A stretch of DNA of 64,000 nucleotides, taken from Prolixibacter sp. NT017 (GTDB lineage: Bacteria > Bacteroidota > Bacteroidia > Bacteroidales > Prolixibacteraceae). Numbering within the stretch: position 1 is the first letter of the stretch; every line of letters begins with the position of its first letter. Shown here one piece after another: positions 20,402 to 35,090 of the stretch. The notes below the pieces were generated by a model, which did not search any database, was not told where the DNA came from, and saw nothing but the letters and a program-made list of their open reading frames with translations. Location: the NCBI RefSeq assembly GCF_009617875.1, contig NZ_BLAV01000001.1, positions 1,302,001 through 1,366,000 on the forward strand. The letters run 5' to 3'. Position numbers and translations under genes: made by a program.

Positions 20402-20556
20402 ATTCCTTCAACAGAATTCCCGCATTTATTCCGCTTAAATAGGCAGTTAGTCATTCTCTTCGAAACGAATATATACCTAAAGTAAACTTCTTATAAAGCT
20501 TTCGTTAATGCTGGGCCTGTCGATGGAAAAAAATGCACGTAAGAAATCCAATTCCA

Positions 20557-20564
20557 TACCTTTG
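20557..20564 (+). promoter_or_regulatory. Candidate -7 promoter element that decides the MFS start
   Basis: TACCTTTG matches TAnnTTTG exactly. It lies downstream of the first possible start codons at 20508 and 20523 but 19 bases before the ATG at 20583, so if it is used, translation must start at 20583. Confidence 0.45.
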
Positions 20565-20582
20565 CATCCTAATCTATTTTCT

Positions 20583-21893
20583 ATGCCGAACTACGCAAGA
20601 ATTCCGTTTCAGGCCAATCGCTGGCCCTTTTTTTATGGTTGGTTTATTGTTCTAATGGGAACATTGGGAATGCTGTTCAGCGTTCCGGGACAAACCATGG
20701 GCGTTTCCGTGTTCACCGACCATTTGATTGGTGAGCTCAACGTATCCCGTGATCAACTCAGTTTGGCGTACATGTTTGGTACCATCGGCAGTTCGCTGTT
20801 CCTTACCCTTGCGGGAAAATGGTATGACCGCTACGGAGTTCGGTTGGTGATGAGCGGAGCGACCATTATGCTGGCTTTTGCTTTGATAGTGGCATCGTTT
20901 TCTCCGGCTATCGTTTTAATGGGGAAAGGACTTACGTTTATGCCATTGTCCTATTTTGCCGTAGTGGTTATGAGCCTTCTATTTTTTCTGATTCGTTTTT
21001 CCGGACAGGGGGTCATGACGTTGGCTTCCCGTAATATGATCATGAAATGGTTTGACCACAAGCGGGGGATGGCCAATGCTTTGAGCAGTGCTTTCGTTAG
21101 CTTCAGTTTCTCGCTGGCACCGCTTTTTCTGGCTTGGGGAATTAACCGGTTCGAATGGGACGGAATGTGGCGTTGGCTGGCCGTTTTGCTATTGCTTTTT
21201 ACAGTCCTTGTATTGGTTTTCTTTCGGGACAACCCGGAAATATGTGGACTGGAGCCTGATGGTAAGATAACAGAACCTTTAGCTGAGAACGAGAAGCCTA
21301 AGCCGGACCGGAAACAGTTTACGTTGCAGGAGGCTCGAAAAACAATAGCGTTTTGGGGCGTTTCCATTGCCAACATGTATAATGGATTTTTTATTACAGG
21401 GTTAACCTTCCACATCATTTCCATTTTTAAGACGGTTGGAATGGACGAATCCAAAGCCCTGGGAATTTTTCTTCCGGCAACCGTTATTTCGGTTGTTGTT
21501 TCCATTGTTGGTAACTACATCAGTGACTTTATCAAGCTGAAATATCTTCTTTTAATCATGGCAACTGGAGGAATATTGGCATCGGTTGGCCTGATTTTGC
21601 TTGGTAACGGATGGGCCTACTATGTGTTGATTGCAGGGAACGGAGTGGTCAGTGGTATATACAGCGTCCTTACGGCTGTAGCGTTTCCCCGTTTTTTCGG
21701 ACGAAAACATCTGGGGGCTATCTCCGGTCTTAATATGTCGATGATTGTTTTTGGCAGCGCTGTTGCTCCCCTGATTTTTAGTCTGAGCAAAACACAAACC
21801 GGAAGTTATTATCATGCCGGAATGTTTTCTTTGACCGTTGCTGTATTGATCTTCTTGCTGGCAACACGGGTTCGTAATCCCCAAACTCATTAA
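20583..21893 (+). CDS. MFS transporter, OFA (oxalate/formate antiporter-like) family
   Basis: About 436 residues from the ATG at 20583; upstream in-frame ATGs at 20508 and 20523 would add a polar, unlikely extension and lie before a probable promoter. The start FYGWFIVLMGTLGMLFSVPGQTMGVSVFTDHLI is characteristic of OFA/monocarboxylate-type MFS proteins. Twelve membrane segments are predicted, with the loop motif LAGKWYDRYGVRLVMSGA and a central charged loop of about 45 residues. It may move an organic acid. It precedes the leucine/mevalonate unit by 169 bp on the same strand; a functional link is possible but not shown. Confidence 0.82.
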   Translation: MPNYARIPFQANRWPFFYGWFIVLMGTLGMLFSVPGQTMGVSVFTDHLIGELNVSRDQLSLAYMFGTIGSSLFLTLAGKWYDRYGVRLVMSGATIMLAFALIVASFSPAIVLMGKGLTFMPLSYFAVVVMSLLFFLIRFSGQGVMTLASRNMIMKWFDHKRGMANALSSAFVSFSFSLAPLFLAWGINRFEWDGMWRWLAVLLLLFTVLVLVFFRDNPEICGLEPDGKITEPLAENEKPKPDRKQFTLQEARKTIAFWGVSIANMYNGFFITGLTFHIISIFKTVGMDESKALGIFLPATVISVVVSIVGNYISDFIKLKYLLLIMATGGILASVGLILLGNGWAYYVLIAGNGVVSGIYSVLTAVAFPRFFGRKHLGAISGLNMSMIVFGSAVAPLIFSLSKTQTGSYYHAGMFSLTVAVLIFLLATRVRNPQTH

Positions 21894-22062
21894 TCTGTTC
21901 TACTTCATTTGAGGTGGTCTGAGTCAATTTGTTACTCATGTCTCGATTTATGAGGGTGATTTTCAATATCTGTTTATAAAAAACTGTCCTTTTGTTCCAT
22001 TTTTGTACAAATTTTATTGAACAAAAAACTTTTATATTTATTTAAGACATGAAACTCTTATA

Positions 22063-23646
22063 TTGCGGCAAATTTTGAAACAGATCAGATCCGAAATAGA
22101 TGAGCAGTCACCCGACTTTAAAGAAAAGGTTGGGGAGTATGAGAATGTGCTGAGTTCCTATCGGGAAGCACTTCGTCAGACCGTTGAACGTGAGCACGAA
22201 CCCGCGGTGAAAAAGCATCTGGACAGAGGCAAATTGCCGGCGCGTAAACGCATCAGTTTGCTGATCGATCCACAAACTCCGTTTTTGGAGCTTTCGACGT
22301 TGGCGGCATACGATCAGTATAACAACCAGTTTCCGTCAGCGGGAATTGTTACTGGCATTGGTCGTATTCATGGTCGTGAAGTGGTGATTATTGCCAACGA
22401 TGCAACGGTGAAAGGTGGCACTTATGTGCACGAAACACTGAAGAAGCACATCAGGGCACAGGAGATTGCCATGCAAAACAATTTGCCGTGTGTGTACCTG
22501 GTCGATTCGGGAGGAATATTTCTGCCGGAACAGGCGAGATTATTTCCCGATAGGTTCGATTTTGGCCGGATTTTCAACAACCAGGCCCGTATGTCAGCCG
22601 AAGGAATTCCGCAGATATCAGTCGTGATGGGCTCTTGTACAGCTGGCGGTGCCTATGTCCCGGCCATGAGTGATGAAACTATCATGGTGAAGAACCAGGG
22701 AACCATTTTCATTGGAGGTCCGCCTTTGGTGAAAGCGGCTACCGGCGAAGATGTGGATGCGGAAGAACTGGGTGGTGCCTTAGTGCACACGGGAATTTCG
22801 GGAGTGGCCGATCACCTGGCGGAGAATGATATTGATGCATTGAAAAAGTGCCGCAGTATCATCGAAACCTTGCCATTGCCCGATAAGCAGGTATTGGATG
22901 TAACACCTCCGGAAGCACCGTTATACAATGCTTCAGATCTGTATGGTCTGGCTCCTGTCGATTTGAAAAAGCCGGTCAGGATGCGCGAAATCATTGCCCG
23001 ATTGGTCGATGGCAGCAAGTTCCAGGAATTTAAGGAGCGTTACGGAACCACTATTATTACTGGTTTTGCCAAAATAATGGGTTTCCCGGTAGGCATTATT
23101 GCCAATAACGGTTTTCTAACATCGGAGGCGTCTTTAAAAGCGGCTCATTTTATCGAATTATGCAACTTCCGGAAGATTCCGTTGTTGTTTTTGCAGAACA
23201 TTACCGGCTTTATCGTCGGAAAAAAATATGAACAGGAGGGCATTGCCCGCAATGGTGCGAAACTGATTCATGCGGTGGCTACGGCCAATGTCCCTCGTTT
23301 TACAGTGATTATTGGTGGTTCATATGGTGCCGGCAATTATGCAATGGCGGGCCGGGCGTATGATCCGAATTTCCTGTTTATGTGGCCCAACGCCCGTATT
23401 GGAGTGATGGGAGGAGAGCAGGCATCCCAGGTGCTACAGTCTATCGGCAAGAAAGGCGGAAAGAGCGGCGCACCTGATTTGGTCAGTCAGTTCGAAGAAG
23501 AGAGTCGTGCTTTGTACAGCACTTCCCGGTTGTGGGATGATGGCATTATTGAGCCGACCGAAACACGCAGTGTGCTGGGATTGGCTATTTCCGTTTCACT
23601 AAACCGGAAGTTCGGTGAACCCAAAACAGGTATTTACCGTATGTAG
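22063..23646 (+). CDS. mccB: Methylcrotonyl-CoA carboxylase, carboxyltransferase (beta) subunit
   Basis: About 527 residues, the usual length for MCC beta. N-terminal phrase HLDRGKLPARKRISLLIDPQTPFLELS, then ANDATVKGGTYV, YLVDSGGIFLPEQARLFPD, MGSCTAGGAYVPAMSDE (acyl-CoA oxyanion region), and in the second half NITGFIVGKKYEQEGIARNGAKL and GGSYGAGNYAMAGRAY are all typical of MCC rather than propionyl-CoA carboxylase. The reading frame has no ATG: the best start is TTG at 22063, or TTG at 22075; an ATG at 22049 is out of frame and stops within ten codons. With the alpha subunit it carboxylates 3-methylcrotonyl-CoA to 3-methylglutaconyl-CoA. First gene of the nine-gene unit. Confidence 0.92.
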   Translation: MRQILKQIRSEIDEQSPDFKEKVGEYENVLSSYREALRQTVEREHEPAVKKHLDRGKLPARKRISLLIDPQTPFLELSTLAAYDQYNNQFPSAGIVTGIGRIHGREVVIIANDATVKGGTYVHETLKKHIRAQEIAMQNNLPCVYLVDSGGIFLPEQARLFPDRFDFGRIFNNQARMSAEGIPQISVVMGSCTAGGAYVPAMSDETIMVKNQGTIFIGGPPLVKAATGEDVDAEELGGALVHTGISGVADHLAENDIDALKKCRSIIETLPLPDKQVLDVTPPEAPLYNASDLYGLAPVDLKKPVRMREIIARLVDGSKFQEFKERYGTTIITGFAKIMGFPVGIIANNGFLTSEASLKAAHFIELCNFRKIPLLFLQNITGFIVGKKYEQEGIARNGAKLIHAVATANVPRFTVIIGGSYGAGNYAMAGRAYDPNFLFMWPNARIGVMGGEQASQVLQSIGKKGGKSGAPDLVSQFEEESRALYSTSRLWDDGIIEPTETRSVLGLAISVSLNRKFGEPKTGIYRM

Positions 23647-23732
23647 GCTTAGTGTTGAAAGGATTGACAAAAAGAGATGAACAGAGAAATCTGTATTTGC
23701 ATAACCTGATTGATTTGCGTAAGCATTGATCT

Positions 23733-24521
23733 ATGGAAAATTACCAAACCCTGGTGGTGAGACCGGAAGGAAAAACGTTGAACCTCTGGTTAAACCGAAG
23801 TGAAGTACATAATGCGCTCAACCGAGAGCTGATTGTCGAGTTGCACCGTTTTTTTCAATGGGCAGAGGAACAGCCTTCTTACCGTTTTGTGGTAATTCGC
23901 GGTGAGGGAAAATCGTTCTGTGCCGGTGCCGATCTGAACTGGATGAAAGAATCAGCTACTCTAAGTGAAGCTGAAAATCTGGAGGACAGCCGCTTGCTCA
24001 CTCACATGTTAATGGCTATCTATCGAAGTTCGAAAGTAGTCGTTGGAGCAGCATACGGTAATATATTCGGTGGTGGAACCGGATTGTTGGCCGCCTGTGA
24101 TATAGCTTATACAGTGTCCAATGCCCGCTTTTCGTTGAGTGAAACCCGACTTGGACTGGTAGCCGCCAGTATTACGCCTTTGCTGATGAAACGTATGAAA
24201 GCTTCGCGGCTGAAGGAATTGATTTTCTCAGGAAGACATTTCAATGGGAACGAGGCATATGAAAATGGTTTAGCCGATCGGGTTTTCGAGTCGGTAGAAG
24301 ATATGGATAGGTTCATCCTTCAGTTGCTTGAGCAGATGTTGAAAGGTGGACCTCGCGCTGTGGTCCGTTCCAAACAGTTGATCAATGAACTATCGGACGG
24401 AACGTCGATGGACGAACATATGAAAAAAATGCCCGAACTGTTGGCGGAAGTGAGAGTAACTCCCGAAGCACAGGAAGGCATTACCGCATTTTTAGAAAAA
24501 CGAACTCCCGACTGGCCTTGA
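23733..24521 (+). CDS. liuC: Enoyl-CoA hydratase family, LiuC-like 3-methylglutaconyl-CoA hydratase
   Basis: A 262-residue crotonase-fold protein. GKSFCAGADLNWM (about 59-71) and GNIFGGGTGLLAACDIAY (about 109-126) build the oxyanion hole. The glutamate of a normal two-Glu hydratase in GGGxE is absent, whereas Glu137 in SLSETRLGLVAASITP is present; this single-Glu arrangement and wording match LiuC-type methylglutaconyl-CoA hydratases. It would convert 3-methylglutaconyl-CoA to HMG-CoA. It lies between the two MCC subunit genes, which supports the assignment. The 86-bp gap to mccB is the widest gap in the unit. Confidence 0.85.
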   Translation: MENYQTLVVRPEGKTLNLWLNRSEVHNALNRELIVELHRFFQWAEEQPSYRFVVIRGEGKSFCAGADLNWMKESATLSEAENLEDSRLLTHMLMAIYRSSKVVVGAAYGNIFGGGTGLLAACDIAYTVSNARFSLSETRLGLVAASITPLLMKRMKASRLKELIFSGRHFNGNEAYENGLADRVFESVEDMDRFILQLLEQMLKGGPRAVVRSKQLINELSDGTSMDEHMKKMPELLAEVRVTPEAQEGITAFLEKRTPDWP

Positions 24522-26515
24522 TGATGGAGAGACTGGAGAAAATATTAATCGCCAATCGCGGCGAAATTGCGCTTCGGATTATCCGGGCAGCGCGTTCCAT
24601 GCACATATCCACGGTCGCTGTTTACTCCGAGGAGGAGGCCGGCGCGTTGCATGTTCGCCAGGCCGATGAGTCGGTGTCGCTCGGAGAAGGTTCGCTTAAT
24701 GATACCTACCTGAATATCGAAAAGATGATTCAGGCGGCGCTTCAATCCGGGGCACAGGCTATTCATCCGGGATATGGTTTCCTTTCTGAAGATTACCGTT
24801 TTGCGGAAGCTTGCGCCGAAGCGGGTATTATTTTTATCGGTCCCGATGCCGAAGTGTTGAGGTTGATGGGAAATAAGATGGAAGCGAAGCAGTTTGCTCA
24901 CCAACTGGGAATTCCGGTTTTGCTCGGTCAAACCCTGGAAGCCGGACAGTTAAATGGTGAAGCCAAAGCATTGGAGTATCCATTGCTGGTTAAAGCTTCC
25001 CACGGAGGTGGCGGAAAGGGTATGCAGATTGTTGGTTCGGCTGATGAGCTAAATGGGAAACTTACGCAGGCATCGCGTGCTGCTGCCAATTACTTCGGTA
25101 ACGGCGAGGTATACGTTGAGCCCTATGTAGAAAAGGCCCGTCACATCGAAGTGCAGATTCTAGGTGATCGTCACGGCAACCTGGTTCACCTGTTCGAGCG
25201 TGATTGCACATTGCAGCGCAATCACCAAAAGATTGTGGAAGAAGCGCCGGCTGCCAATCTTCCAGGAGCTGTGCAGGAGCAACTCCTGAATGCGGCTTTA
25301 TCGCTGGGGAAGGAAACCAACTATTCGGGTGCCGGAACTGTCGAGTTTTTGGTCGAACCCGACGGTCGTTTCTGGTTTATGGAAATGAACCCACGTATCC
25401 AGGTGGAACATCCGGTAACCGAAGAAGTGACAGGGATTGATATTGTCCGGGAACAATTGCGAATTGCTTCCGGTGAATCGCTGTCTTTCCGGCAAAGCGA
25501 CGTTTCGCTGAAAGGACATGCCATCGAGGTGCGTATCTATCGCGAAGATCCGGAGAAAGCGTTTGCGCCGTCGTCTGCACCGGTTAATTTTTACCGGTTG
25601 CCCGGAAATGGTGTCCGGCTGGAGACTGATTTGGATGGGGATAACGAAGCCGGCAGCCAGTTCGATCCGCTGATTGCCAAGATTATCACTTATGGCGAAA
25701 GCCGAAGTGATGCATTGGCGAAGATGGAATATGCCCTGAAAGAACTGTCGGTTCATGGCCCGAAGACCAATCTTTTGTATCTGAAACATTTGTTGAAAGA
25801 AACTTCGGTTGTCAACAACGATATACATACCGCCTTTATTGGCGAACAGCTGCAGGAACATCTGGATGGCTTACAGCAGAATCGCGAGAATGTATCACGG
25901 GAAGTTTTGTTGGCAGCCTATCTGTATCTTGGTTTTCTGCGAAAGCAAAACAATGCGGCTGATACCTGGGAACAGGTAGGATTCCATCGCATAAAAAATC
26001 AGGTCGAAATAGCTATTGACGACCAACTTTTTTCGGTTACTTTTCATTCCCGGAATGGAAACCATTTTCAGCTGCAGGCTGGGGACAAAACATTTTCGGT
26101 TTCGGTGAAAGAAACGGATACGCAGCGCTTAACTGTTTCGCTGGAGGGAAAGAACCACGAAATTTTCTGGTCAAATCATCCGGTAGCCGGAAAATGGCTG
26201 GACTCAGATGGCTTTCATTTTCATCTGACCAGTCCCGATTTGCTGGATGATTATCATGGTGAAGCTGCCGGAGAAGAGCCGGGAACGGCAGAAAATGAAG
26301 CGGTAGTTCGCTCGCCGCTACACGGAAAGATTATCGATATTCAAGTCAAACATAATCAAATCATCAAAAAAGGGGAGATATTGCTGGTGATCGAATCGAT
26401 GAAATCGGAGAACCACGTTACATCGCCCCGAGCAGCAAAAATTAAATCCATTGCTGTAGAGGTTGGCAGCCAGGTAACTGACGAAATGCCTTTAATTATT
26501 CTGGAGGATATTTAA
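24521..26515 (+). CDS. mccA: Methylcrotonyl-CoA carboxylase, biotin carboxylase/carrier (alpha) subunit
   Basis: About 664 residues. The stop of liuC and this start share one base (TGATG, ATG at 24521; ATG 24524 is also possible). The biotin carboxylase domain (about 1-445) has KILIANRGEIALRIIRAAR, HPGYGFLSE, the ATP-grasp loop HGGGGKGM, HIEVQILGDRHGN, RDCTLQRNHQKIVEEAPA and EMNPRIQVEHPVTE. A linker domain follows. The biotin carrier domain at the C-terminus (about 590-664) carries ESMKSEN with the biotin lysine near 628. Carboxylates biotin with ATP and bicarbonate and hands it to MccB. Confidence 0.93.
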   Translation: MMERLEKILIANRGEIALRIIRAARSMHISTVAVYSEEEAGALHVRQADESVSLGEGSLNDTYLNIEKMIQAALQSGAQAIHPGYGFLSEDYRFAEACAEAGIIFIGPDAEVLRLMGNKMEAKQFAHQLGIPVLLGQTLEAGQLNGEAKALEYPLLVKASHGGGGKGMQIVGSADELNGKLTQASRAAANYFGNGEVYVEPYVEKARHIEVQILGDRHGNLVHLFERDCTLQRNHQKIVEEAPAANLPGAVQEQLLNAALSLGKETNYSGAGTVEFLVEPDGRFWFMEMNPRIQVEHPVTEEVTGIDIVREQLRIASGESLSFRQSDVSLKGHAIEVRIYREDPEKAFAPSSAPVNFYRLPGNGVRLETDLDGDNEAGSQFDPLIAKIITYGESRSDALAKMEYALKELSVHGPKTNLLYLKHLLKETSVVNNDIHTAFIGEQLQEHLDGLQQNRENVSREVLLAAYLYLGFLRKQNNAADTWEQVGFHRIKNQVEIAIDDQLFSVTFHSRNGNHFQLQAGDKTFSVSVKETDTQRLTVSLEGKNHEIFWSNHPVAGKWLDSDGFHFHLTSPDLLDDYHGEAAGEEPGTAENEAVVRSPLHGKIIDIQVKHNQIIKKGEILLVIESMKSENHVTSPRAAKIKSIAVEVGSQVTDEMPLIILEDI

Positions 26516-26517
26516 CT

Positions 26518-27666
26518 ATGGACGAATTATTGCCCAAACACTACGCAGACTATCGTAAGCGAATCAGAGATTTTGCAGAGAAGGAGGTTCATCCTGTTGC
26601 AATTGAGCATGACGAAAACGAGCATTTTCCTGTTGATTTAGCCCGCAAAATGGGCGAAGCCGGACTCTTTGGAATTGCCATTCCCAAAGAATACGGAGGA
26701 CAGGGGCTCGATACGTTGTCGTACATTATTGCAGTGGAAGAGTTGGCCCGTGTGGACAGCTCGCCGGCAGCGACCATTGCTGCCCACAATTCACTGGGAA
26801 TTGCACCCATCTATTCGTACGGAACAGAGGAACAAAAGCAGAAATATATCCCGGGTTTGTGTACGGGGGAGAAACTTTGGGCGTTTGGATTAACGGAAGT
26901 TACTGCCGGTTCGGATGCTAAAGGTGTGGCATCGCGTGCCGAACTGGTCGACGGCGAGTGGGTTGTCAACGGCTCCAAGATGTTTATCACGAATAGCGCA
27001 TCGGAAATTGCTTCCGGTATTACCTTGCAGGCCATCACCGGTGAAAAGGACGGGAAAAAAGAGCTGACTGCTATTTTAGTCCCTCGCGAAACGCCCGGAT
27101 ACGAAACCTGGCCAGTGAAAGGAAAGCTGATGTGGCGCTCGGTGGACAACGGCAAAATGAAATTTACCGATTGCCGTGTGCCGGAAGAAAATATGCTGGG
27201 TAAACGTGGCGAAGGAATCAAGATTATGCTTGCCACACTCGATGGCGGACGTTTGTCGATTGCTGCCATGGGACTCGGTCTGGCGCAGGGTGCTTTCGAA
27301 ATGGCGGTGAAACATGCCAAAAAGCGTGAGCAGTTTGGTAAACCGATTGCTGAATTTCAGGCGGTTTCTTTCAAGTTGGCCGAGATGGCTATGCGCATCG
27401 AGTTGGCCCGGAATACGCTGTACCGTGCTTGCCAGCTGAAAGATGCCGGAAAACCTTTCGGTAAAGAAGCAGCCATGTCGAAACTGTACTGCTCGGAAGT
27501 AGCCAAATTTGTAGCCGACGAGTCCGTTCAGGTTCATGGAGCATACGGTCTGCTTCGCGAAAATCATATTGAACGTTTCTATCGTGACCAGCGTTTGCTT
27601 CAGATTGGTGAAGGAACTTCCGAAATTCTGAGGATGGTCATTGGTCGTTATGTCTTAAAATCGTAA
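26518..27666 (+). CDS. Acyl-CoA dehydrogenase, short/branched-chain type
   Basis: A 382-residue flavoprotein beginning two bases after mccA. Family motifs are AIPKEYGGQG, FGLTEVTAGSDAKG (flavin-binding), GSKMFITNSASE, REQFGKPIAEFQAVSFKLAEMAM and the C-terminal RFYRDQRLLQIGEGTSEILR. The catalytic base is Glu365 in EGTSE, the position used by short- and medium-chain and 2-methyl-branched enzymes. Isovaleryl-CoA dehydrogenases usually have a non-acidic residue there and use an internal glutamate around 254, where this protein has GGR. Context says leucine (isovaleryl-CoA to 3-methylcrotonyl-CoA); residues rather say straight-chain or 2-methyl substrates. Substrate therefore open. Confidence 0.88.
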   Translation: MDELLPKHYADYRKRIRDFAEKEVHPVAIEHDENEHFPVDLARKMGEAGLFGIAIPKEYGGQGLDTLSYIIAVEELARVDSSPAATIAAHNSLGIAPIYSYGTEEQKQKYIPGLCTGEKLWAFGLTEVTAGSDAKGVASRAELVDGEWVVNGSKMFITNSASEIASGITLQAITGEKDGKKELTAILVPRETPGYETWPVKGKLMWRSVDNGKMKFTDCRVPEENMLGKRGEGIKIMLATLDGGRLSIAAMGLGLAQGAFEMAVKHAKKREQFGKPIAEFQAVSFKLAEMAMRIELARNTLYRACQLKDAGKPFGKEAAMSKLYCSEVAKFVADESVQVHGAYGLLRENHIERFYRDQRLLQIGEGTSEILRMVIGRYVLKS

Positions 27667-27693
27667 ACTGTTTTCCAAAGAAATCAGATAAAC

Positions 27694-28704
27694 ATGGGCA
27701 CCGATCGCAAACTGGATCACATTAAGCTGGCTTTTCAATCGCAGATGAACGGAATAGCTGCCGATGAGCGGTTCTTCTACGAACCGATGTTGTCAGGACA
27801 TCCGGTGGACGAACCGGACGAAATTTCGTTTGCCGGGAAGAAGCTAAAAGCTCCGGTTTGGGTTTCGAGTATGACCGGCGGTACCAAACTGGCCAATACC
27901 ATCAACCATAACCTGGCGCGTGCCTGTGGCGAATTTGGCCTTGGAATGGGATTGGGCTCATGCCGCAAACTGTTGGATGACGATACCTATTTCTCCGATT
28001 TTGATGTCCGTATCGATATTGGTGATGAACAACCACTTTATACCAACCTGGGGATTGCTCAGGTGGAAGAGTTGCTGGATAAGGGGCAGACAGACAAAAT
28101 CGAGCGGCTCGTCGAACGCCTTCGTGCCGATGGATTGATTGTCCATATCAACCCGATGCAGGAGTGGCTTCAGCCGGAAGGAAACCTCATTCAGCATCCC
28201 CCGATTGAAACGGTGGAACGCTTGTTAGAGCAGGTTCAGTTCCCGGTTATCGTGAAGGAAGTGGGGCAGGGATTTGGCCCGGAAAGTCTACTCCGGCTTT
28301 TGAAGCTTCCGCTGGCTGCGGTTGATTTTGGTGCTTTTGGCGGAACCAACTTTGCCCGCATCGAACTGGAACGCAACAGCGACCTGAACAAAGAGCAGTA
28401 TGAGCCGTTTGTGCGTGTCGGCATGTCCGCGGAGCAGATGCTCGATGCGGTGAATCAAATGGTAGATGGAGGTGAAGAAATCAAGTGTCGGCAACTGATC
28501 ATTTCAGGCGGTATACAAAATTTCCTCGATGGTTACTACCTAACGGAAAAATCGAAATTGCCGGCTATCTATGCGCAGGCTTCTGCTTTTCTGAAATACA
28601 GCCAGGGGGAATATGAGGTGCTGAGAAATTATGTGGAAGCCCAGTTGAAAGGTTTGCGTATTGCCAAAGCATTTCTTCGGATTAACGAAAATCATTCTGA
28701 ATGA
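27694..28704 (+). CDS. fni: Type 2 isopentenyl-diphosphate delta-isomerase (FMN)
   Basis: A 336-residue protein. The N-terminal RKLDHIKLAFQSQMN, the SSMTGGT motif, ACGEFGLGMGLGSCRKLL, the phrase LIVHINPMQEWLQPEG with the conserved Gln/Glu pair, VIVKEVGQGFGP and the FMN-binding FGAFGGTNFARIE are those of flavin-dependent type 2 IPP isomerase. It interconverts IPP and DMAPP. It starts 27 bp after the dehydrogenase gene and overlaps the HMG-CoA reductase gene by ATGA. This is the junction between the leucine-type and the mevalonate-type genes. Confidence 0.93.
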   Translation: MGTDRKLDHIKLAFQSQMNGIAADERFFYEPMLSGHPVDEPDEISFAGKKLKAPVWVSSMTGGTKLANTINHNLARACGEFGLGMGLGSCRKLLDDDTYFSDFDVRIDIGDEQPLYTNLGIAQVEELLDKGQTDKIERLVERLRADGLIVHINPMQEWLQPEGNLIQHPPIETVERLLEQVQFPVIVKEVGQGFGPESLLRLLKLPLAAVDFGAFGGTNFARIELERNSDLNKEQYEPFVRVGMSAEQMLDAVNQMVDGGEEIKCRQLIISGGIQNFLDGYYLTEKSKLPAIYAQASAFLKYSQGEYEVLRNYVEAQLKGLRIAKAFLRINENHSE

Positions 28705-30023
28705 CGAAAAACGAACGGATTATCAGTGGCTTTTCCAAACTGAACCGGTCGCAACGAATCGATTTAATATGGGACCGGCTGGGACTTGATGAGGCTTCCC
28801 GGTCGGTGCTTGATAATTTCTTGCATCAAAATCCGTCAACTCAAGCACTTTTCGAAGAGTTTAGCGAAAATTTCCTGACGAACTTCTTTATGCCCATGGG
28901 CGTCGTTCCCAACGTAGTGGTGAACGGTCAATCATACATCGTTCCGATGGTGATTGAAGAGAGTTCGGTGATTGCTGCTGCGTCCAGGGCTGCCAAGTTC
29001 TGGGCTTCGCGAGGTGGTTTTCAGGCCCGCGTATCCGGAATGGTCAAAAAAGGGCAAGTGCATTTTTCCTGGTCCGGAGAATCGAAAGATTTGAAGGCTG
29101 CTTTCCCGTTTCTGAAAGAGAAAATGCTGGCTGCTACACATGATTTAACGGCTCGCATGCGGAAGCGGGGCGGTGGAATCATCGCAGTCGAATTGGTCGA
29201 CAAAACCAGTGAACTGGCAGACTATTACCAGGTAGATGTTTCCTTTGAAACAGCCGACGCGATGGGCGCAAATTTCATCAATTCGTGTCTGGAAACCATG
29301 GCGGGAGTTTTGGTCGATGAGTTGAATAACTCGGAAACAAACGGCGAGGCGAGTGTCATCATGTCGATTTTATCGAACTACACGCCCGATAGTCTGGTGG
29401 AATGTTGGGTGGAATGTAATATCGACGAACTGGCTCCGTTTAGCGGAAAATTGAAGCCGGAAGAGTTTGCCCGGAAATTTGAAAAGGCCAGCCAAATTGC
29501 ACAATTGGATGTATCGCGGGCAGTAACGCATAACAAAGGCATTTACAATGGCGTCGATGCTGTTGTGTTAGCTACCGGAAATGACTGGCGGGCGGTTGAG
29601 GCTTGTGGTCATGCATTTGCGGCTTCTAATGGAAAATACCGCAGCCTGACGTTTGCCGAAATCGACGGTGACCGGTTTCGTTACACACTGCGGCTTCCTT
29701 TGGCACTTGGAACCGTGGGCGGCCTGACCAAAGCACATCCGGTTTCCAAGCTGGCGCTGGAACTGTTGGAGAATCCCGATGCAAAAACATTGATGATGAT
29801 TGCAGCGGCAGCTGGTTTGGCTAATAATTTTGCGGCTGTTGCATCGCTCACAACGGTCGGCATTCAGCAAGGGCACATGAAAATGCACCTAACCAACATT
29901 CTGAATCAGTTGGGAGCAACGGCAGAAGAAAAAAGCAAATGCACCCAATATTTCAGTGTTAAAAATATCGCTTACGCAGAAGTAGAAAAATACCTGAACC
30001 ACATCAGGAATACCAATGGCTGA
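28701..30023 (+). CDS. mvaA: Hydroxymethylglutaryl-CoA reductase, class II
   Basis: A 440-residue protein of the bacterial class II type, without the membrane anchor of eukaryotic enzymes. Visible motifs are ENFLTNFFMPMGVVPN near the N-terminus, EESSVIAAASRAAKFW with the catalytic glutamate, DAMGANFIN, the lysine in THNKGIYNG, TLRLPLALGTVGGLT, and GIQQGHMKMH near the C-terminus with the catalytic histidine. Reduces HMG-CoA to mevalonate (cofactor not predictable). Overlaps fni by four bases and the following kinase by eight. No gene for HMG-CoA synthase lies in the window. Confidence 0.95.
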   Translation: MTKNERIISGFSKLNRSQRIDLIWDRLGLDEASRSVLDNFLHQNPSTQALFEEFSENFLTNFFMPMGVVPNVVVNGQSYIVPMVIEESSVIAAASRAAKFWASRGGFQARVSGMVKKGQVHFSWSGESKDLKAAFPFLKEKMLAATHDLTARMRKRGGGIIAVELVDKTSELADYYQVDVSFETADAMGANFINSCLETMAGVLVDELNNSETNGEASVIMSILSNYTPDSLVECWVECNIDELAPFSGKLKPEEFARKFEKASQIAQLDVSRAVTHNKGIYNGVDAVVLATGNDWRAVEACGHAFAASNGKYRSLTFAEIDGDRFRYTLRLPLALGTVGGLTKAHPVSKLALELLENPDAKTLMMIAAAAGLANNFAAVASLTTVGIQQGHMKMHLTNILNQLGATAEEKSKCTQYFSVKNIAYAEVEKYLNHIRNTNG

Positions 30024-30951
30024 AACAACCAACACAAGAGTATTTTATTCCCGCGGCAAATTGTTGCTGACGGGTGAGTATGCTGTGCTTCGTGGTGCGG
30101 AGGCATTGGCTCTTCCATCCAGATTGGGGCAATACCTGGAAGTGTTAGAAGGAAATGAACCCGGCGTTTTATCATGGGAAAGTATTTCGCCTTCCGGGAA
30201 GTGGTTCGAAGCGCGTTTTAGTTTACCCGCATTGGATGTTATTTCAGCTACAGATAGCCAGAAAGCCGGTGTTTTGAAGGAACTTTTCCTGACCGCCCGA
30301 AAACTGCATGCTGGTTTCCTGGAAAGGGAAGAAGCTTTGCAAGCCAGGTCGACCCTTGAATTTCTTCCCGAGTGGGGATTGGGTTCCAGTAGTTCATTGG
30401 TTTCCAATATTGCCGATTGGGCCAAATGCGACCCGTTTCGGTTAAATGGACTAGTCTTTCACAGTTCCGGCTACGATGTCGCGTGTGCCCGTTCGAAAGG
30501 GCCGATTTTGTATCGAAGGGTGAATAATTTGCCGGAAGTAATTTCCGCGAAATTCAGGCCTTCGTTTGGAGCTAATTTGTGGTTGGTGTACCTGAATGAA
30601 AAGAAAAATTCGAAGCAGGCAGTAAACGCGTTTGCCGGGTTAACTGTTGATGAAATGATACTGGAGAGGATTTCGTCGATTGCAGGCGAAACTGCTGCGG
30701 CTGATGATTTGGATAGCTTTTGTGCCTTGATGGATGAGCATGAAAAGCTGGTCGGCGGAATGACAGGGCAAATTCCTGTGAAGGAAAGACTCTTTTCCGA
30801 TTTTGAGGGGTGTATCAAGTCGTTGGGAGCATGGGGAGGCGATTTCATTCTGGCAGCGACTAAGTGGCCGGAAGAGGAAGTGAGAAAATGGTTTGGAGAG
30901 CGGGGATATGAAACCGTTCTTCCGTTTAACGAAATGATTTCATATGGCTGA
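30016..30951 (+). CDS. GHMP kinase, GYDIA family; probable phosphomevalonate kinase
   Basis: A 311-residue GHMP kinase. The N-terminal strand SRGKLLLTGEYAVLRGAEALALP, the ATP-loop WGLGSSSSLVSNIA, the SSGYDVACARSKGPILYRR segment, and a C-terminal GAWGGDFILAA are present. The GYDVA wording corresponds to the GYDIA family found in flavobacterial mevalonate clusters. By elimination (mevalonate kinase and decarboxylase are both encoded next to it) it should phosphorylate 5-phosphomevalonate. It overlaps both neighbours by eight bases. The ATP-loop is typical; substrate is inferred from context. Confidence 0.85.
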   Translation: MAETTNTRVFYSRGKLLLTGEYAVLRGAEALALPSRLGQYLEVLEGNEPGVLSWESISPSGKWFEARFSLPALDVISATDSQKAGVLKELFLTARKLHAGFLEREEALQARSTLEFLPEWGLGSSSSLVSNIADWAKCDPFRLNGLVFHSSGYDVACARSKGPILYRRVNNLPEVISAKFRPSFGANLWLVYLNEKKNSKQAVNAFAGLTVDEMILERISSIAGETAAADDLDSFCALMDEHEKLVGGMTGQIPVKERLFSDFEGCIKSLGAWGGDFILAATKWPEEEVRKWFGERGYETVLPFNEMISYG

Positions 30952-32020
30952 TAAAAAGAGTGACTGGAAAGAGACTACGTGGGTTAGTCCTTCAAATATT
31001 GCCTTGATTAAATATTGGGGAAAGCATGGCGAGCAATTGCCCAATAACCCGTCGTTGAGTTTGACGTTGAAGAATTCGGTCACTAAAACAAAGCTTCGTT
31101 ACCGGAGGCTTGATGAACCCGTGCCGGATTCCGAGGATTTGAAAGTTGCTTATTGGTTCGATGGAGAGCGGAATGAGGCTTTCGAAAGGAAAGTGGCTAA
31201 TTATTTACGGCGATTACTCCCGGAGATGCCCTATTTAACAAGCCTTGAGCTGGAATTTCAAAGTACGAACACCTTTCCGCACTCAACCGGAATTGCTTCT
31301 TCGGCGTCCTCGATGAGTGCGATTACGCTCTGTTTAGTCGATATGGAAAAAAAGATGGGACTGCGAAAACCTCCCACTCAGGATTTGTCTCGTCGTGCGT
31401 CGCATCTGGCCCGGTTAGGGTCGGGGAGTGCCTGTCGCTCGGTGTATGGCGGTTGGGTCACCTGGGGGGAAGACGGTTTGTTGCCCGATTCTTCCGACCG
31501 ATATGCGTCGCCTTTGGAGCAGGACATTCCCGAACAATGGCAAAATTTGCGGGATGCCATTTTGATTGTTAATTCCGACCGGAAGAAAGTTTCAAGTTCT
31601 GCTGGTCATGGATTGATGAGCAATCATCCTTTTGCGGAAGGTCGTTACCGTCAGGCCCGGAAACACCTGAACTGTATGATGCTGGCGCTCCAGAACGGAG
31701 ATGAGAAGACCTTTGTTGAAGTGGTGGAGAGTGAAGCATTGTCGTTGCATGGTTTACTGATGACCTCCTCGCAGGACGGTTTGTTGTTGCAACCCGAATC
31801 GCTTCAGATTATCAATGCGGTTCGCGCTTTTCGCGAAAAAACAGGCTTGATGGTTTGTTTTACGTTGGATGCGGGCCCCAATGTGCATTTGCTTTATCGC
31901 GACGAAGACAAAGAGATGGTGCAACAATTTATTCAGGAGGAGTTGCTTCCGTTCTGTGAAAACAGGCAATGGATTGATGATGAAATTGGCGAAGGCCCCT
32001 ATAAAGAGGAAATTAAATGA
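30944..32020 (+). CDS. mvaD: Diphosphomevalonate decarboxylase
   Basis: A 358-residue GHMP-fold decarboxylase. Signature pieces are SPSNIALIKYWGKHGEQLPNNPS, TFPHSTGIASSASSMSAI (ATP-binding serine-rich loop), RLGSGSACRSVYGGWVTW, SDRKKVSSSAGH and FTLDAGPNVHLLY with the catalytic Asp. It converts mevalonate diphosphate to IPP with ATP. Start ATG 30944 overlaps the kinase by eight bases; the stop overlaps the mevalonate kinase start by ATGA. Confidence 0.94.
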   Translation: MADKKSDWKETTWVSPSNIALIKYWGKHGEQLPNNPSLSLTLKNSVTKTKLRYRRLDEPVPDSEDLKVAYWFDGERNEAFERKVANYLRRLLPEMPYLTSLELEFQSTNTFPHSTGIASSASSMSAITLCLVDMEKKMGLRKPPTQDLSRRASHLARLGSGSACRSVYGGWVTWGEDGLLPDSSDRYASPLEQDIPEQWQNLRDAILIVNSDRKKVSSSAGHGLMSNHPFAEGRYRQARKHLNCMMLALQNGDEKTFVEVVESEALSLHGLLMTSSQDGLLLQPESLQIINAVRAFREKTGLMVCFTLDAGPNVHLLYRDEDKEMVQQFIQEELLPFCENRQWIDDEIGEGPYKEEIK

Positions 32021-32973
32021 AGCGTTTCCCGGCAAAAATATTACTATTCGGCGAGTACAGCATTATTACGGGCTCGAAAGGACTGGCGCTTCCGTTTAAT
32101 CTATACGGTGGTCAGTTAGCCTTTCCTGTCGGGAAAATGAGTCCGGCCGAGAAAGAGGCGGCTCATATTTCCAACCAACATTTGGCGGAATTGCTTGGTT
32201 TCCTGGAGAAAAATGCAGCAGCACCGGTCTTCTTAAATTTGACTTCCTTCCGGGATGATTTGGCTACCGGACTTTATTTTCAATCAAATATTCCCAATCA
32301 ATACGGAGTGGGCAGTTCCGGCGCTTTAACAGCTGCTTTGTATCATCGGTATGGTCAGGATACGGAAGAAGAGACGTTGCCGGAGATACGGAAGCAAATG
32401 GCGGTCATCGAGTCGTTTTATCACGGAACCAGCTCTGGACTGGATCCGTTGGTGTCGTACGTACAAAAGCCTGTTTGGATCGAAAGCCGCGATAAAATCA
32501 GCGTAGAAGCCGGTTGGCCGGAAAAATTTTTCGATGAATATGCTGTTTTCCTAATTGACAGCGGACAGCAGGGCGGAACCGGCGATTTGGTTAACTGGTT
32601 TATGGAACAGCATCAGCGGCCCGGTTTTCGGGAAGTTTTCGAGGAAGAATTAGTAAGCGGTATTGATGAACTGGTAGACGCTCTATTGCATGCTCAAACC
32701 GATCCGGTTCAGGCGGTTCTGCAACGCATTTCCCGTTTTCAGCTCGACTATTTTCGTCCCATGATTCCGGTGGAGTTCCGGAAGCATTTCCGGTATGGCC
32801 TGGAAACTGATGATTTTACGTTAAAGCTGTGTGGCTCGGGAGGCGGTGGTTATCTGCTTGGTTTTACCAAAAATCGCATTGCAACCGAGAAATATTTCCG
32901 GGAAAGGGAAATCAGTTGTCTTTTTGTCGAAATGATTCCCGAAAGTGTGGACGGAAACGGGTTCCCTTCTTAA
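32017..32973 (+). CDS. mvk: Mevalonate kinase
   Basis: A 318-residue GHMP kinase, last gene of the nine-gene unit. AKILLFGEYSIITGSKGLALP at the N-terminus, NQYGVGSSGALTAALYHRYG (ATP loop), the ESFYHGTSSGLDPLVSY motif with the catalytic Asp, and LCGSGGGGYLLGF at the C-terminus are typical of mevalonate kinase. Together with the preceding kinase and decarboxylase it takes mevalonate to IPP. A strong hairpin terminator follows 8 bp after the stop. Confidence 0.88.
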   Translation: MKRFPAKILLFGEYSIITGSKGLALPFNLYGGQLAFPVGKMSPAEKEAAHISNQHLAELLGFLEKNAAAPVFLNLTSFRDDLATGLYFQSNIPNQYGVGSSGALTAALYHRYGQDTEEETLPEIRKQMAVIESFYHGTSSGLDPLVSYVQKPVWIESRDKISVEAGWPEKFFDEYAVFLIDSGQQGGTGDLVNWFMEQHQRPGFREVFEEELVSGIDELVDALLHAQTDPVQAVLQRISRFQLDYFRPMIPVEFRKHFRYGLETDDFTLKLCGSGGGGYLLGFTKNRIATEKYFREREISCLFVEMIPESVDGNGFPS

Positions 32974-32980
32974 AAAGAAA

Positions 32981-33030
32981 ATGTACCATCGGTGCTTCTT
33001 CGGCTACCAACGGTACATCGCTAATTTTTT
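32981..33030 (+). terminator. Terminator of the leucine/mevalonate unit
   Basis: ATGTACC-ATCGGT (32981-32993) pairs with ACCAAC-GGTACAT (33006-33018), and TTTTTT follows at 33025-33030. It is the only clear terminator seen between 22063 and 33030, which supports one transcript for all nine genes. Confidence 0.75.
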
Positions 33031-34832: not shown

Positions 34833-35090
34833 GAGGGTCGGATAAGCTGCCGATTTCTGTCGGCGACATTCCTGAGGGTAGGATGAGTTGCCGATTTTTG
34901 TCGGCAACGTTCCTGAGGGTCGGATGAGTTGCCGGTTTTTGTCGGCAACGTTCCTGAGGGTCGGGTGAGCTGCCGGTTTTTGTCGGCAACGTTCCTGAGG
35001 GTCGGGTGAGCTGCCGGTTTTTTCCGGCAACGTTCCTGAGGGTCGGATGAACTGCCGATTTTTTCCGGCAACGTTCCGGAGGGGAGGTTG
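34833..35090. repeat. Six tandem copies of a 41-bp hairpin unit
   Basis: The unit starts GAGGGTCGGATGAG, contains GTTGCCGA-TTTTTG-TCGGCAAC (8-bp perfect stem) and ends GTTCCT. Copies start at 34833, 34874, 34915, 34956, 34997 and 35038, each exactly 41 bp apart, and a partial seventh starts at 35079. Copies differ by a few substitutions, some of them paired (TCGGC in earlier copies, CCGGC in the last two). All three minus frames are open through the array; since 41 is not a multiple of 3 this only shows that the unit lacks stop codons. There are no spacers, so it is not CRISPR. The array ends 73 bp before the DUF6261-like gene. Confidence 0.92.

What the first reader, a model, noticed from the sequence alone, without database searches (positions are those of the whole stretch)
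22063..32973. One operon that appears to feed leucine breakdown straight into the mevalonate pathway
Nine genes on one strand, with gaps of 2-86 bp and overlaps of 1-8 bp, run mccB, liuC-like, mccA, acyl-CoA dehydrogenase, fni, HMG-CoA reductase, GYDIA kinase, mvaD, mvk, and end at the only strong terminator seen. Leucine degradation through MCC and methylglutaconyl-CoA hydratase gives HMG-CoA, which is the substrate of HMG-CoA reductase. There is no HMG-CoA synthase and no HMG-CoA lyase in the window. Hence leucine carbon could be used for isoprenoids without passing through acetyl-CoA. Leishmania is known to make sterols from leucine in this way; a dedicated bacterial operon would be new to my knowledge. 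The sequence shows gene content and order; pathway use is inference. A reverse use, as in the HMG-CoA to isovaleryl-CoA route of myxobacteria, is unlikely because MCC is present.
Basis: partly seen in the sequence, partly recalled or inferred. Interest (0 to 1): 0.88.

Follow-up and report, generated by a model that had tools for sequence, protein, structure and literature searches.

The report
Leucine-to-isoprenoid operon in Bacteroidota
A Prolixibacter-like bacterium carries one conserved nine-gene unit that appears to turn a break-down product of the amino acid leucine directly into the building blocks of isoprenoids, without the enzyme that normally starts the mevalonate pathway.

Summary
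The nine genes are real, co-directional and nearly gapless. The window lies in a one-contig 5.14 Mb genome whose closest listed named relative is Prolixibacter denitrificans. No HMG-CoA synthase and no HMG-CoA lyase was found in it. The operon can make HMG-CoA from 3-methylcrotonyl-CoA and holds HMG-CoA reductase. The nine-gene order recurs in 20 distinct genomes. Of 27 genomes with carboxylase and reductase genes linked, none has a lyase-like gene or a clear synthase; of 47 not seen linked, 31 have a lyase-like gene. Some relatives add a 2-oxoacid dehydrogenase E1, lipoyl synthase or a MenA-like gene. Against: the dehydrogenase is SCAD-like, and nine Flavobacteriaceae show no synthase and no MEP marker, their HMG-CoA source being unexplained. 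Flux is inferred. The leucine shunt itself is known from archaea and Leishmania.

The parts
20508..21893 (+). MFS transporter, 170 bp upstream; candidate importer, possibly not part of the operon
   Evidence: PF07690; SfMCT lactate-transporter model 80 bits, cut-off 320; beside mccB in all four genus members examined (G000-G003)
21990..22074 (+). conserved leader/promoter region with a possible short upstream ORF (22049-22078) whose stop overlaps the likely mccB start
   Evidence: alignment of four genus members; sequence
22075..23646 (+). mccB, 3-methylcrotonyl-CoA carboxylase beta (ORF opens at 22063; likely start TTG 22075)
   Evidence: 634 and 618 bits to two MCC beta chains, 445 to geranyl-CoA carboxylase, 276 to the next PCC beta; but two chains labelled PCC or acetyl-/propionyl-CoA carboxylase score 643 (9tps) and 632 (AccD1); start by indel
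23733..24521 (+). liuC-like, proposed 3-methylglutaconyl-CoA hydratase
   Evidence: ECH_1; NF005675 222 bits and gamma-carboxygeranoyl-CoA hydratase NF004227 195 bits, both below cut-off
24518..26515 (+). mccA, biotin carboxylase / biotin carrier subunit
   Evidence: Biotin_carb_N, CPSase_L_D2, Biotin_carb_C, Biotin_lipoyl
26518..27666 (+). acyl-CoA dehydrogenase, assigned isovaleryl-CoA dehydrogenase by context only; SCAD-like, Glu365 in IGEGT invariant in 11 aligned sequences
27694..28704 (+). fni, type 2 isopentenyl-diphosphate isomerase (divergent)
   Evidence: TIGR02151 192 bits, cut-off 281; no Pfam match
28701..30023 (+). HMG-CoA reductase, class II by recalled motifs
   Evidence: PF00368 295 bits; TIGR00532 243 bits, cut-off 260; only PF00368 match of the genome
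30016..30951 (+). GYDIA-family GHMP kinase, proposed phosphomevalonate kinase
   Evidence: NF040656 326 bits, cut-off 225; weak profile match to mevalonate kinases; PMK role by elimination
30944..32020 (+). mvaD, diphosphomevalonate decarboxylase
   Evidence: TIGR01240 172 bits, cut-off 171; MVD-like_N, MDD_C
32017..32973 (+). mvk, mevalonate kinase
   Evidence: profile A5 matches mevalonate kinase 2x7i best, E 1e-20; TIGR00549 71 bits, cut-off 163
32981..33030 (+). probable intrinsic terminator
   Evidence: fold -14.1 kcal/mol, z -2.05, T run after it

Best explanation
The operon encodes a leucine (or isovalerate) fed mevalonate pathway. Isovaleryl-CoA is oxidised by the operon's acyl-CoA dehydrogenase to 3-methylcrotonyl-CoA, carboxylated by MccAB to 3-methylglutaconyl-CoA and hydrated by LiuC to HMG-CoA. 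With no HMG-CoA lyase found to cleave it, HMG-CoA is reduced by HMG-CoA reductase to mevalonate, phosphorylated by Mvk and the GYDIA kinase, decarboxylated by MvaD to IPP and isomerised by Fni to DMAPP. HMG-CoA synthase is not needed. In this genome, which also has MEP markers, it serves as a second isoprenoid supply. Shown: gene content, order, conservation, no detectable synthase or lyase. Inferred: substrates of the dehydrogenase and kinases, single transcript, flux and direction.
For: Nine genes with overlaps. No HMG-CoA synthase in the genome by three models, each of which rang in control or other genomes. No lyase. Full order in 20 distinct genomes: 16 of the 26 HMGR-bearing genomes among own plus 60 relatives, in 12 genera and two families, and four more named-record genomes; a further 5 of the 26 partly linked. 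Lyase-like gene in 0 of 27 linked against 31 of 47 not seen linked (Fisher 2.5e-9, not corrected for kinship; presence sets entered by hand). Identities of six of the nine genes co-vary between 18 loci (Spearman 0.68-0.91, 153 pairs), so the linkage is old. Some relatives have a fused 2-oxoacid dehydrogenase E1 next to mccB, lipoyl synthase after mvk, or a MenA-like UbiA gene. The own genome has an E1 homologue (54%) and leucine-biosynthesis genes (named by inspection).
Against: No expression or labelling data. The dehydrogenase resembles short-chain enzymes (best 389 bits) more than isovaleryl-CoA dehydrogenases (244 and 236 bits for two, 206-207 for the mitochondrial ones). IspG and DXR are present, so the route need not be essential. 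Two linked genomes give very weak synthase-profile matches (G023 23 bits, G103 22 bits), read here as other condensing enzymes without a test. An unrelated synthase could be hidden: nine Flavobacteriaceae with HMGR show neither MEP marker nor a detected synthase, and the five of them looked at show no MCC cluster, so absence by these models may not mean absence of activity. Nine of the 47 'unlinked' genomes have less than 5 kb of contig upstream of HMGR, so there linkage was not seen rather than excluded.
Confidence: 0.82

Rival explanations
1. An unrecognised HMG-CoA synthase works elsewhere; the operon merely joins leucine breakdown to a normal acetyl-CoA-fed mevalonate pathway.
For: Nine Flavobacteriaceae in the set have HMGR without detected synthase or MEP markers, and the five looked at have no MCC cluster, so an unseen HMG-CoA source may exist in the phylum.
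Against: Three models found nothing in the own genome while ringing elsewhere, also in a divergent 349-aa protein of G048. It does not explain why a lyase-like gene is missing from all 27 linked genomes, without which leucine breakdown cannot end in the usual way.
Confidence: 0.09
2. The route starts from imported isovalerate (or 2-ketoisocaproate) rather than from leucine. It shares all steps from isovaleryl-CoA on with the best explanation, so the two overlap.
For: In gut Bacteroidales G071 the liu genes are followed by a phosphate butyryltransferase-like gene (303 bits, below cut-off) and a butyrate kinase (498 bits, over cut-off), which suggests activation of an acid; G081 looks alike by inspection. 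An MFS gene lies next to mccB in the genus.
Against: The own operon holds no activating enzyme. In six relatives an E1 of a 2-oxoacid dehydrogenase adjoins mccB, pointing to the keto acid of leucine.
Confidence: 0.25
3. The pathway runs backward: mevalonate or HMG-CoA is used to make isovaleryl-CoA for branched fatty acids, as in myxobacteria.
For: Hydratases and dehydrogenases are reversible (recalled); the myxobacterial aib route starts from HMG-CoA (passage in PMC9548883).
Against: No synthase found to make HMG-CoA; MCC spends ATP in the carboxylating direction (recalled); genes from mevalonate to IPP and the isomerase follow; a MenA-like gene follows in three relatives.
Confidence: 0.03
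4. Mevalonate is a carbon source, broken down through HMG-CoA (Pseudomonas mevalonii type).
For: The best NCBIfam model of the reductase is TIGR00532 'degradative', below its cut-off.
Against: That use needs HMG-CoA lyase (recalled), not found here, and does not explain kinases, decarboxylase and isomerase.
Confidence: 0.02

Closest known systems
Leucine shunt to mevalonate in Halobacterium salinarum and Leishmania
   Same: Leucine to HMG-CoA to mevalonate (passage in review PMC8791446; Yamauchi 2010 seen only as a reference entry)
   Different: Here one bacterial operon holds both halves, and neither HMG-CoA synthase nor lyase is detected in the genome
Pseudomonas liu leucine-catabolism cluster
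   Same: MCC alpha and beta, a LiuC-like hydratase and an acyl-CoA dehydrogenase together (composition of liu recalled; citation seen)
   Different: No HMG-CoA lyase; SCAD-like instead of IVD-like dehydrogenase; followed by mevalonate genes
Bacterial mevalonate-pathway operons
   Same: HMG-CoA reductase, mevalonate kinase, decarboxylase and isomerase
   Different: No HMG-CoA synthase found; no recognised phosphomevalonate kinase, GYDIA kinase in its place
Myxococcus alternative isovaleryl-CoA route (aib)
   Same: Links leucine intermediates and the mevalonate pathway (passage in PMC9548883)
   Different: Runs from HMG-CoA to isovaleryl-CoA and involves HMG-CoA synthase (reference titles)
Leucine-derived sterols in Trypanosoma brucei
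   Same: Leucine contributes carbon to sterols (start of abstract of PMC5993337 in a listing)
   Different: Eukaryote, no operon

Membership tests
Leucine shunt (leucine to HMG-CoA to mevalonate) | Enzymes from isovaleryl-CoA to HMG-CoA encoded (dehydrogenase, MCC, hydratase) | tested here: met
   dehydrogenase and hydratase substrates assigned by context
Leucine shunt (leucine to HMG-CoA to mevalonate) | HMG-CoA reductase and a route to IPP encoded | tested here: met
   phosphomevalonate kinase step by elimination
Leucine shunt (leucine to HMG-CoA to mevalonate) | Leucine skeleton incorporated into isoprenoids | not testable with these tools
   needs isotope labelling
Leucine shunt (leucine to HMG-CoA to mevalonate) | Source of isovaleryl-CoA (branched-chain 2-oxoacid dehydrogenase) in the genome | tested here: inconclusive
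   fused E1 homologue at G000:C1:2129381-2131768, 54%; substrate unknown, E2/E3 not searched
Canonical acetyl-CoA-fed mevalonate pathway | HMG-CoA synthase | tested here: not met
Canonical liu leucine catabolism | HMG-CoA lyase | tested here: not met
Canonical liu leucine catabolism | IVD-type isovaleryl-CoA dehydrogenase in the cluster | tested here: not met
   SCAD-like by score; Glu in IGEGT
MCC (not PCC or GCC) | MccB closer to MCC than to GCC or PCC chains | tested here: met
   634/618 against 445 (GCC) and 276 (next PCC); two chains with PCC-type labels score 643 and 632
Mevalonate catabolism (P. mevalonii type) | HMG-CoA lyase beside a degradative HMGR | tested here: not met
Phosphomevalonate kinase (GYDIA) | Phosphorylation of mevalonate-5-phosphate | not testable with these tools
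   needs an assay; the structure job did not finish

The most novel reading that the evidence does not exclude
Using leucine or isovalerate instead of HMG-CoA synthase is a general mode of isoprenoid supply in Bacteroidia. In its extreme form, gut Bacteroidales in which no DXR, IspG, HMG-CoA synthase or lyase was found (G071, G075, G077, G078, G081; draft genomes) make all their isoprenoids from imported isovalerate: two of these five carry the mcc, liuC and acd genes followed by ptb- and buk-like genes. Branched-chain volatile fatty acids would then be an obligate isoprenoid precursor in the gut.
Probability: 0.4. Interest if true: 0.87.

Novelty: new variant of a known kind. Interest (0 to 1): 0.74.

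Why it matters
It would be a dedicated bacterial operon in which amino-acid breakdown replaces HMG-CoA synthase; none of the entries shown by ten library searches reports one (four of the lists were capped and most subscription journals are not held). It ties protein breakdown to quinone and lipid supply, would explain HMG-CoA reductase in genomes without a synthase, gives MCC an anabolic role, and can be tested by simple labelling. It also points to GYDIA as the phosphomevalonate kinase reported missing in Flavobacteriaceae (passage in PMC4026382).

Tried and rejected
Chance adjacency: rejected by conserved order. Geranyl-CoA carboxylase: MccB scores favour MCC. Sole isoprenoid source in this genome: rejected, IspG and DXR present. 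I first took G083 (L063) for an operon-bearing genome without MEP because DXR was not found; IspG is there, so I dropped that; no genome lacking both markers has the linked operon (0 of 33). I suspected PF08540 of being a poor marker, as it rang in only 4 of 73 genomes; a Bacteroidota-type profile gave the same four clear positives, so the suspicion was not borne out. MCC presence (72 of 76 genomes at 560 bits or more, G048 and the duplicate G061 included) as general proof: weakened, since in six Flavobacteriaceae loci, one of them (G092) from a genome with a synthase, the hit is a lone gene of 43-45% identity with no mccA near and no close liuC, though one example still scores nearest to MCC-clade chains. 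Terminator scan: no more than chance.

Rows dropped or limits: G048 (no HMGR) and G061 (same genome as G002) were removed from the 76, leaving 74. 50 of the 80 named loci were given; L038 of these was not held and not searched. One search examined 105 loci plus the window (106); L116 and L117 gave no HMGR hit, leaving 104. One search compared six of nine genes in 18 of the 21 full loci (window, L032 and the duplicate L121 left out). Lyase-like means about 155 bits or more; ten rows in nine genomes pass the model's own cut-off of 246, the other 22 genomes do not (up to 205 bits, ORFs of about 285-360 aa). Literature lists were capped (25 of 72; 15 of 82; 15 of 152; 12 of 54). Papers: passages only for PMC8791446, PMC9201399, PMC3199775, PMC9636800, PMC9548883, PMC13001223, PMC3533463, PMC4026382 and PMC6155224; the rest in listings.
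Full report
Observation. Nine + strand ORFs lie at 22063-32973 with gaps of 86, 2 and 27 bp and overlaps of 4-8 bp. An alignment of four genus members shows a one-base indel between TTG 22063 and TTG 22075, so the protein probably starts at 22075. A hairpin with a T run follows mvk; a plain consensus scan finds no excess of terminators.

Whose genome. The window is G000:C1:1302001-1366000 of a 5.14 Mb one-contig genome, 99.2% complete. The closest listed named relative of its reductase is Prolixibacter denitrificans DSM 27267, 99% (records of the own genome may be left out there).

HMG-CoA synthase. PF08540 finds none in the genome. PF01154 rings in 1 of 61 genomes (own plus 60 relatives), G048, which has no HMG-CoA reductase. 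A profile of Bacteroidota-type synthases (A1) gives nothing in the own genome; in 76 genomes it gives seven matches: four clear ones (674-860 bits: G091, G092, G107, G109), G048 (63 bits) and two very weak ones (G023 23 bits, G103 22 bits; both carry the operon). PF08540 rang in the same four of 73 genomes.

HMG-CoA lyase. PF00682 rings three times in the own genome. The ORFs are 505, 513 and 636 aa and look like isopropylmalate synthase, a second enzyme of that kind, both inside an ilv-leu gene run, and a carboxylase/decarboxylase subunit (named by inspection). The lyase model NF004283 gives at most 51 bits there, cut-off 246.

MEP pathway. IspG is found in 60 of 61 genomes including the own, DXR in 42 of 76 including the own. 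So the operon need not be the only source of isoprenoids here. G020, with the full operon, shows DXR but no IspG in two searches; its genus mate G036 has IspG, so an assembly gap or a recent loss is possible. The other MEP genes were not searched.

Conservation. HMG-CoA reductase occurs in 26 of 61 genomes. Of these 26, 16 (12 genera, two families) have all nine genes in the same order, five more have mcc genes linked to the reductase with a gene undetected, other ORFs between or the contig cut, and in five no link was seen (in G049 the contig begins just before the reductase). With the named records, 21 of 104 sequences, from 20 distinct genomes, have all nine. Among 18 such loci the lowest pairwise identities are 0.34 (MccA) to 0.55 (MccB) for six genes compared, and identities co-vary between genes (Spearman 0.68-0.91). 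The unit is old and inherited together.

Linkage and lyase. Of 74 genomes, 27 have mcc and reductase linked: none has a lyase-like gene, none a clear synthase. Of the other 47, 31 have a lyase-like gene and 4 a synthase. The Fisher value (2.5e-9) ignores kinship; the presence sets were entered by hand; nine of the 47 have less than 5 kb of contig upstream of the reductase. The pattern fits HMG-CoA being kept for mevalonate where the two halves are joined.

Extensions. A fused dehydrogenase E1 adjoins mccB in six genomes: G064 (L040), G083 (L063), G017 (L129; the stretch holds Ns), G034, G063 and G069; its domains were checked for L063. Lipoyl synthase lies downstream in L040, L045, L063, L127, L128, L129 and L131; a UbiA protein in L130, L131 and L132. 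For L063 LipA passes its cut-off; the L131 UbiA protein is MenA-like but below the MenA cut-offs. These would add the keto-acid step before and a quinone prenylation step after. The own genome has an E1 homologue elsewhere (54%; E1 found in 29 of 39 genomes, two of these only weakly).

Enzyme identity. MccB scores 634 and 618 bits to two MCC beta chains against 445 for geranyl-CoA carboxylase and 276 for the next propionyl-CoA carboxylase, but the top chain, 9tps (643), is labelled PCC and AccD1 (632) acetyl-/propionyl-CoA carboxylase. The acyl-CoA dehydrogenase is SCAD-like and keeps a Glu in IGEGT in all 11 aligned sequences; its isovaleryl-CoA role is inferred. The reductase shows EESSV, THNKG, GNDWRA, DAMGAN and GHMKMH stretches as expected of class II enzymes (motifs recalled, read). 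Mvk matches mevalonate kinase 2x7i best; GYDIA matches mevalonate kinases only weakly, so its phosphomevalonate kinase role is by elimination.

The wider picture. MCC-type genes at 560 bits or more occur in 72 of 76 genomes; the other four are G104 (none), G090 (337 bits), G089 (392, partial) and G094 (346, partial). Thirty-three of 74 genomes show neither DXR nor IspG, 29 of those no clear synthase, and nine of these no lyase-like gene either. Five gut Bacteroidales among the nine (G071, G075, G077, G078, G081) have MccB at 884-893 bits. In G071 the order is mccB-liuC-mccA-acd-ptb-buk (ptb below, buk over its cut-off). In G081 the same genes occur with three ORFs, two on the other strand, between liuC and mccA; its ptb and buk are named by inspection. 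In the other three mccB stands alone and liuC and mccA were not sought elsewhere. None of the five has a match to the E1 gene, which suggests isovalerate as the source. G104, a sixth of this kind, and G090, a Saprospiraceae MAG, have no MCC-clade hit and do not fit the reading unless incomplete. In G079 and G080 the MCC hits are 608 and 588 bits and no neighbourhood was looked at.

Unexplained. Nine Flavobacteriaceae have HMGR and a lyase-like gene but no DXR, IspG or detected synthase. PMC4026382 (passages) reports all mevalonate enzymes but phosphomevalonate kinase in the Flavobacteriaceae it compared, so either these nine differ or my search missed theirs. This is the main caution against reading synthase absence as proof.

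Literature. The review PMC8791446 (passages) describes the leucine shunt in Halobacterium and Leishmania. PMC6155224 (passages) proposes leucine input to archaeal isoprenoids. [quoted passage not shown] the present case would be an exception. A 2026 review of bacterial isoprenoid pathways (PMC13001223, passages) has no occurrence of 'leucine' in its main text. The entries shown by ten searches of the held library include no such operon.

Verdict. A real, old, conserved operon, best read as a leucine/isovalerate-fed mevalonate pathway without HMG-CoA synthase. The chemistry is known; the dedicated bacterial operon and the synthase-free arrangement are new to what I could search.

Noticed in passing
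L174:8169-15831 (G071) and L175:473-10539 (G081), gut Bacteroidales: mccB, liuC, mccA and acd followed by phosphate butyryltransferase- and butyrate-kinase-like genes, in genomes where no DXR, IspG, HMG-CoA synthase or lyase was found; contiguous in L174, interrupted in L175
   Followed up: partly
G082, G088, G093, G096, G099, G100, G102, G105, G106 (Flavobacteriaceae): HMG-CoA reductase and a lyase-like gene present but no DXR, IspG or detected HMG-CoA synthase; five of them looked at have only a lone MCC-like beta gene; HMG-CoA source unknown
   Followed up: partly
window 30016-30951; L031-L135: A GYDIA-cluster ORF occurs in 89 of 105 HMGR neighbourhoods, a good candidate for the missing phosphomevalonate kinase
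   Followed up: partly
window 22049-22078: Possible short upstream ORF (MKLLYCGKF) with two leucine codons, its stop overlapping the likely mccB start; the DNA is nearly identical in four genus members but the end of the reading frame is not conserved
   Followed up: partly
window 34833-35083: Tandem array of about six 41-bp units downstream of the operon
   Followed up: no
G020: Full nine-gene operon and DXR, but IspG not found in two searches of a 99% complete genome
   Followed up: partly
L185 (Bdellovibrionota, G098): Mevalonate genes convergent with mccB, liuC, mccA and an HMG-CoA lyase over its cut-off: another arrangement of the same modules
   Followed up: no
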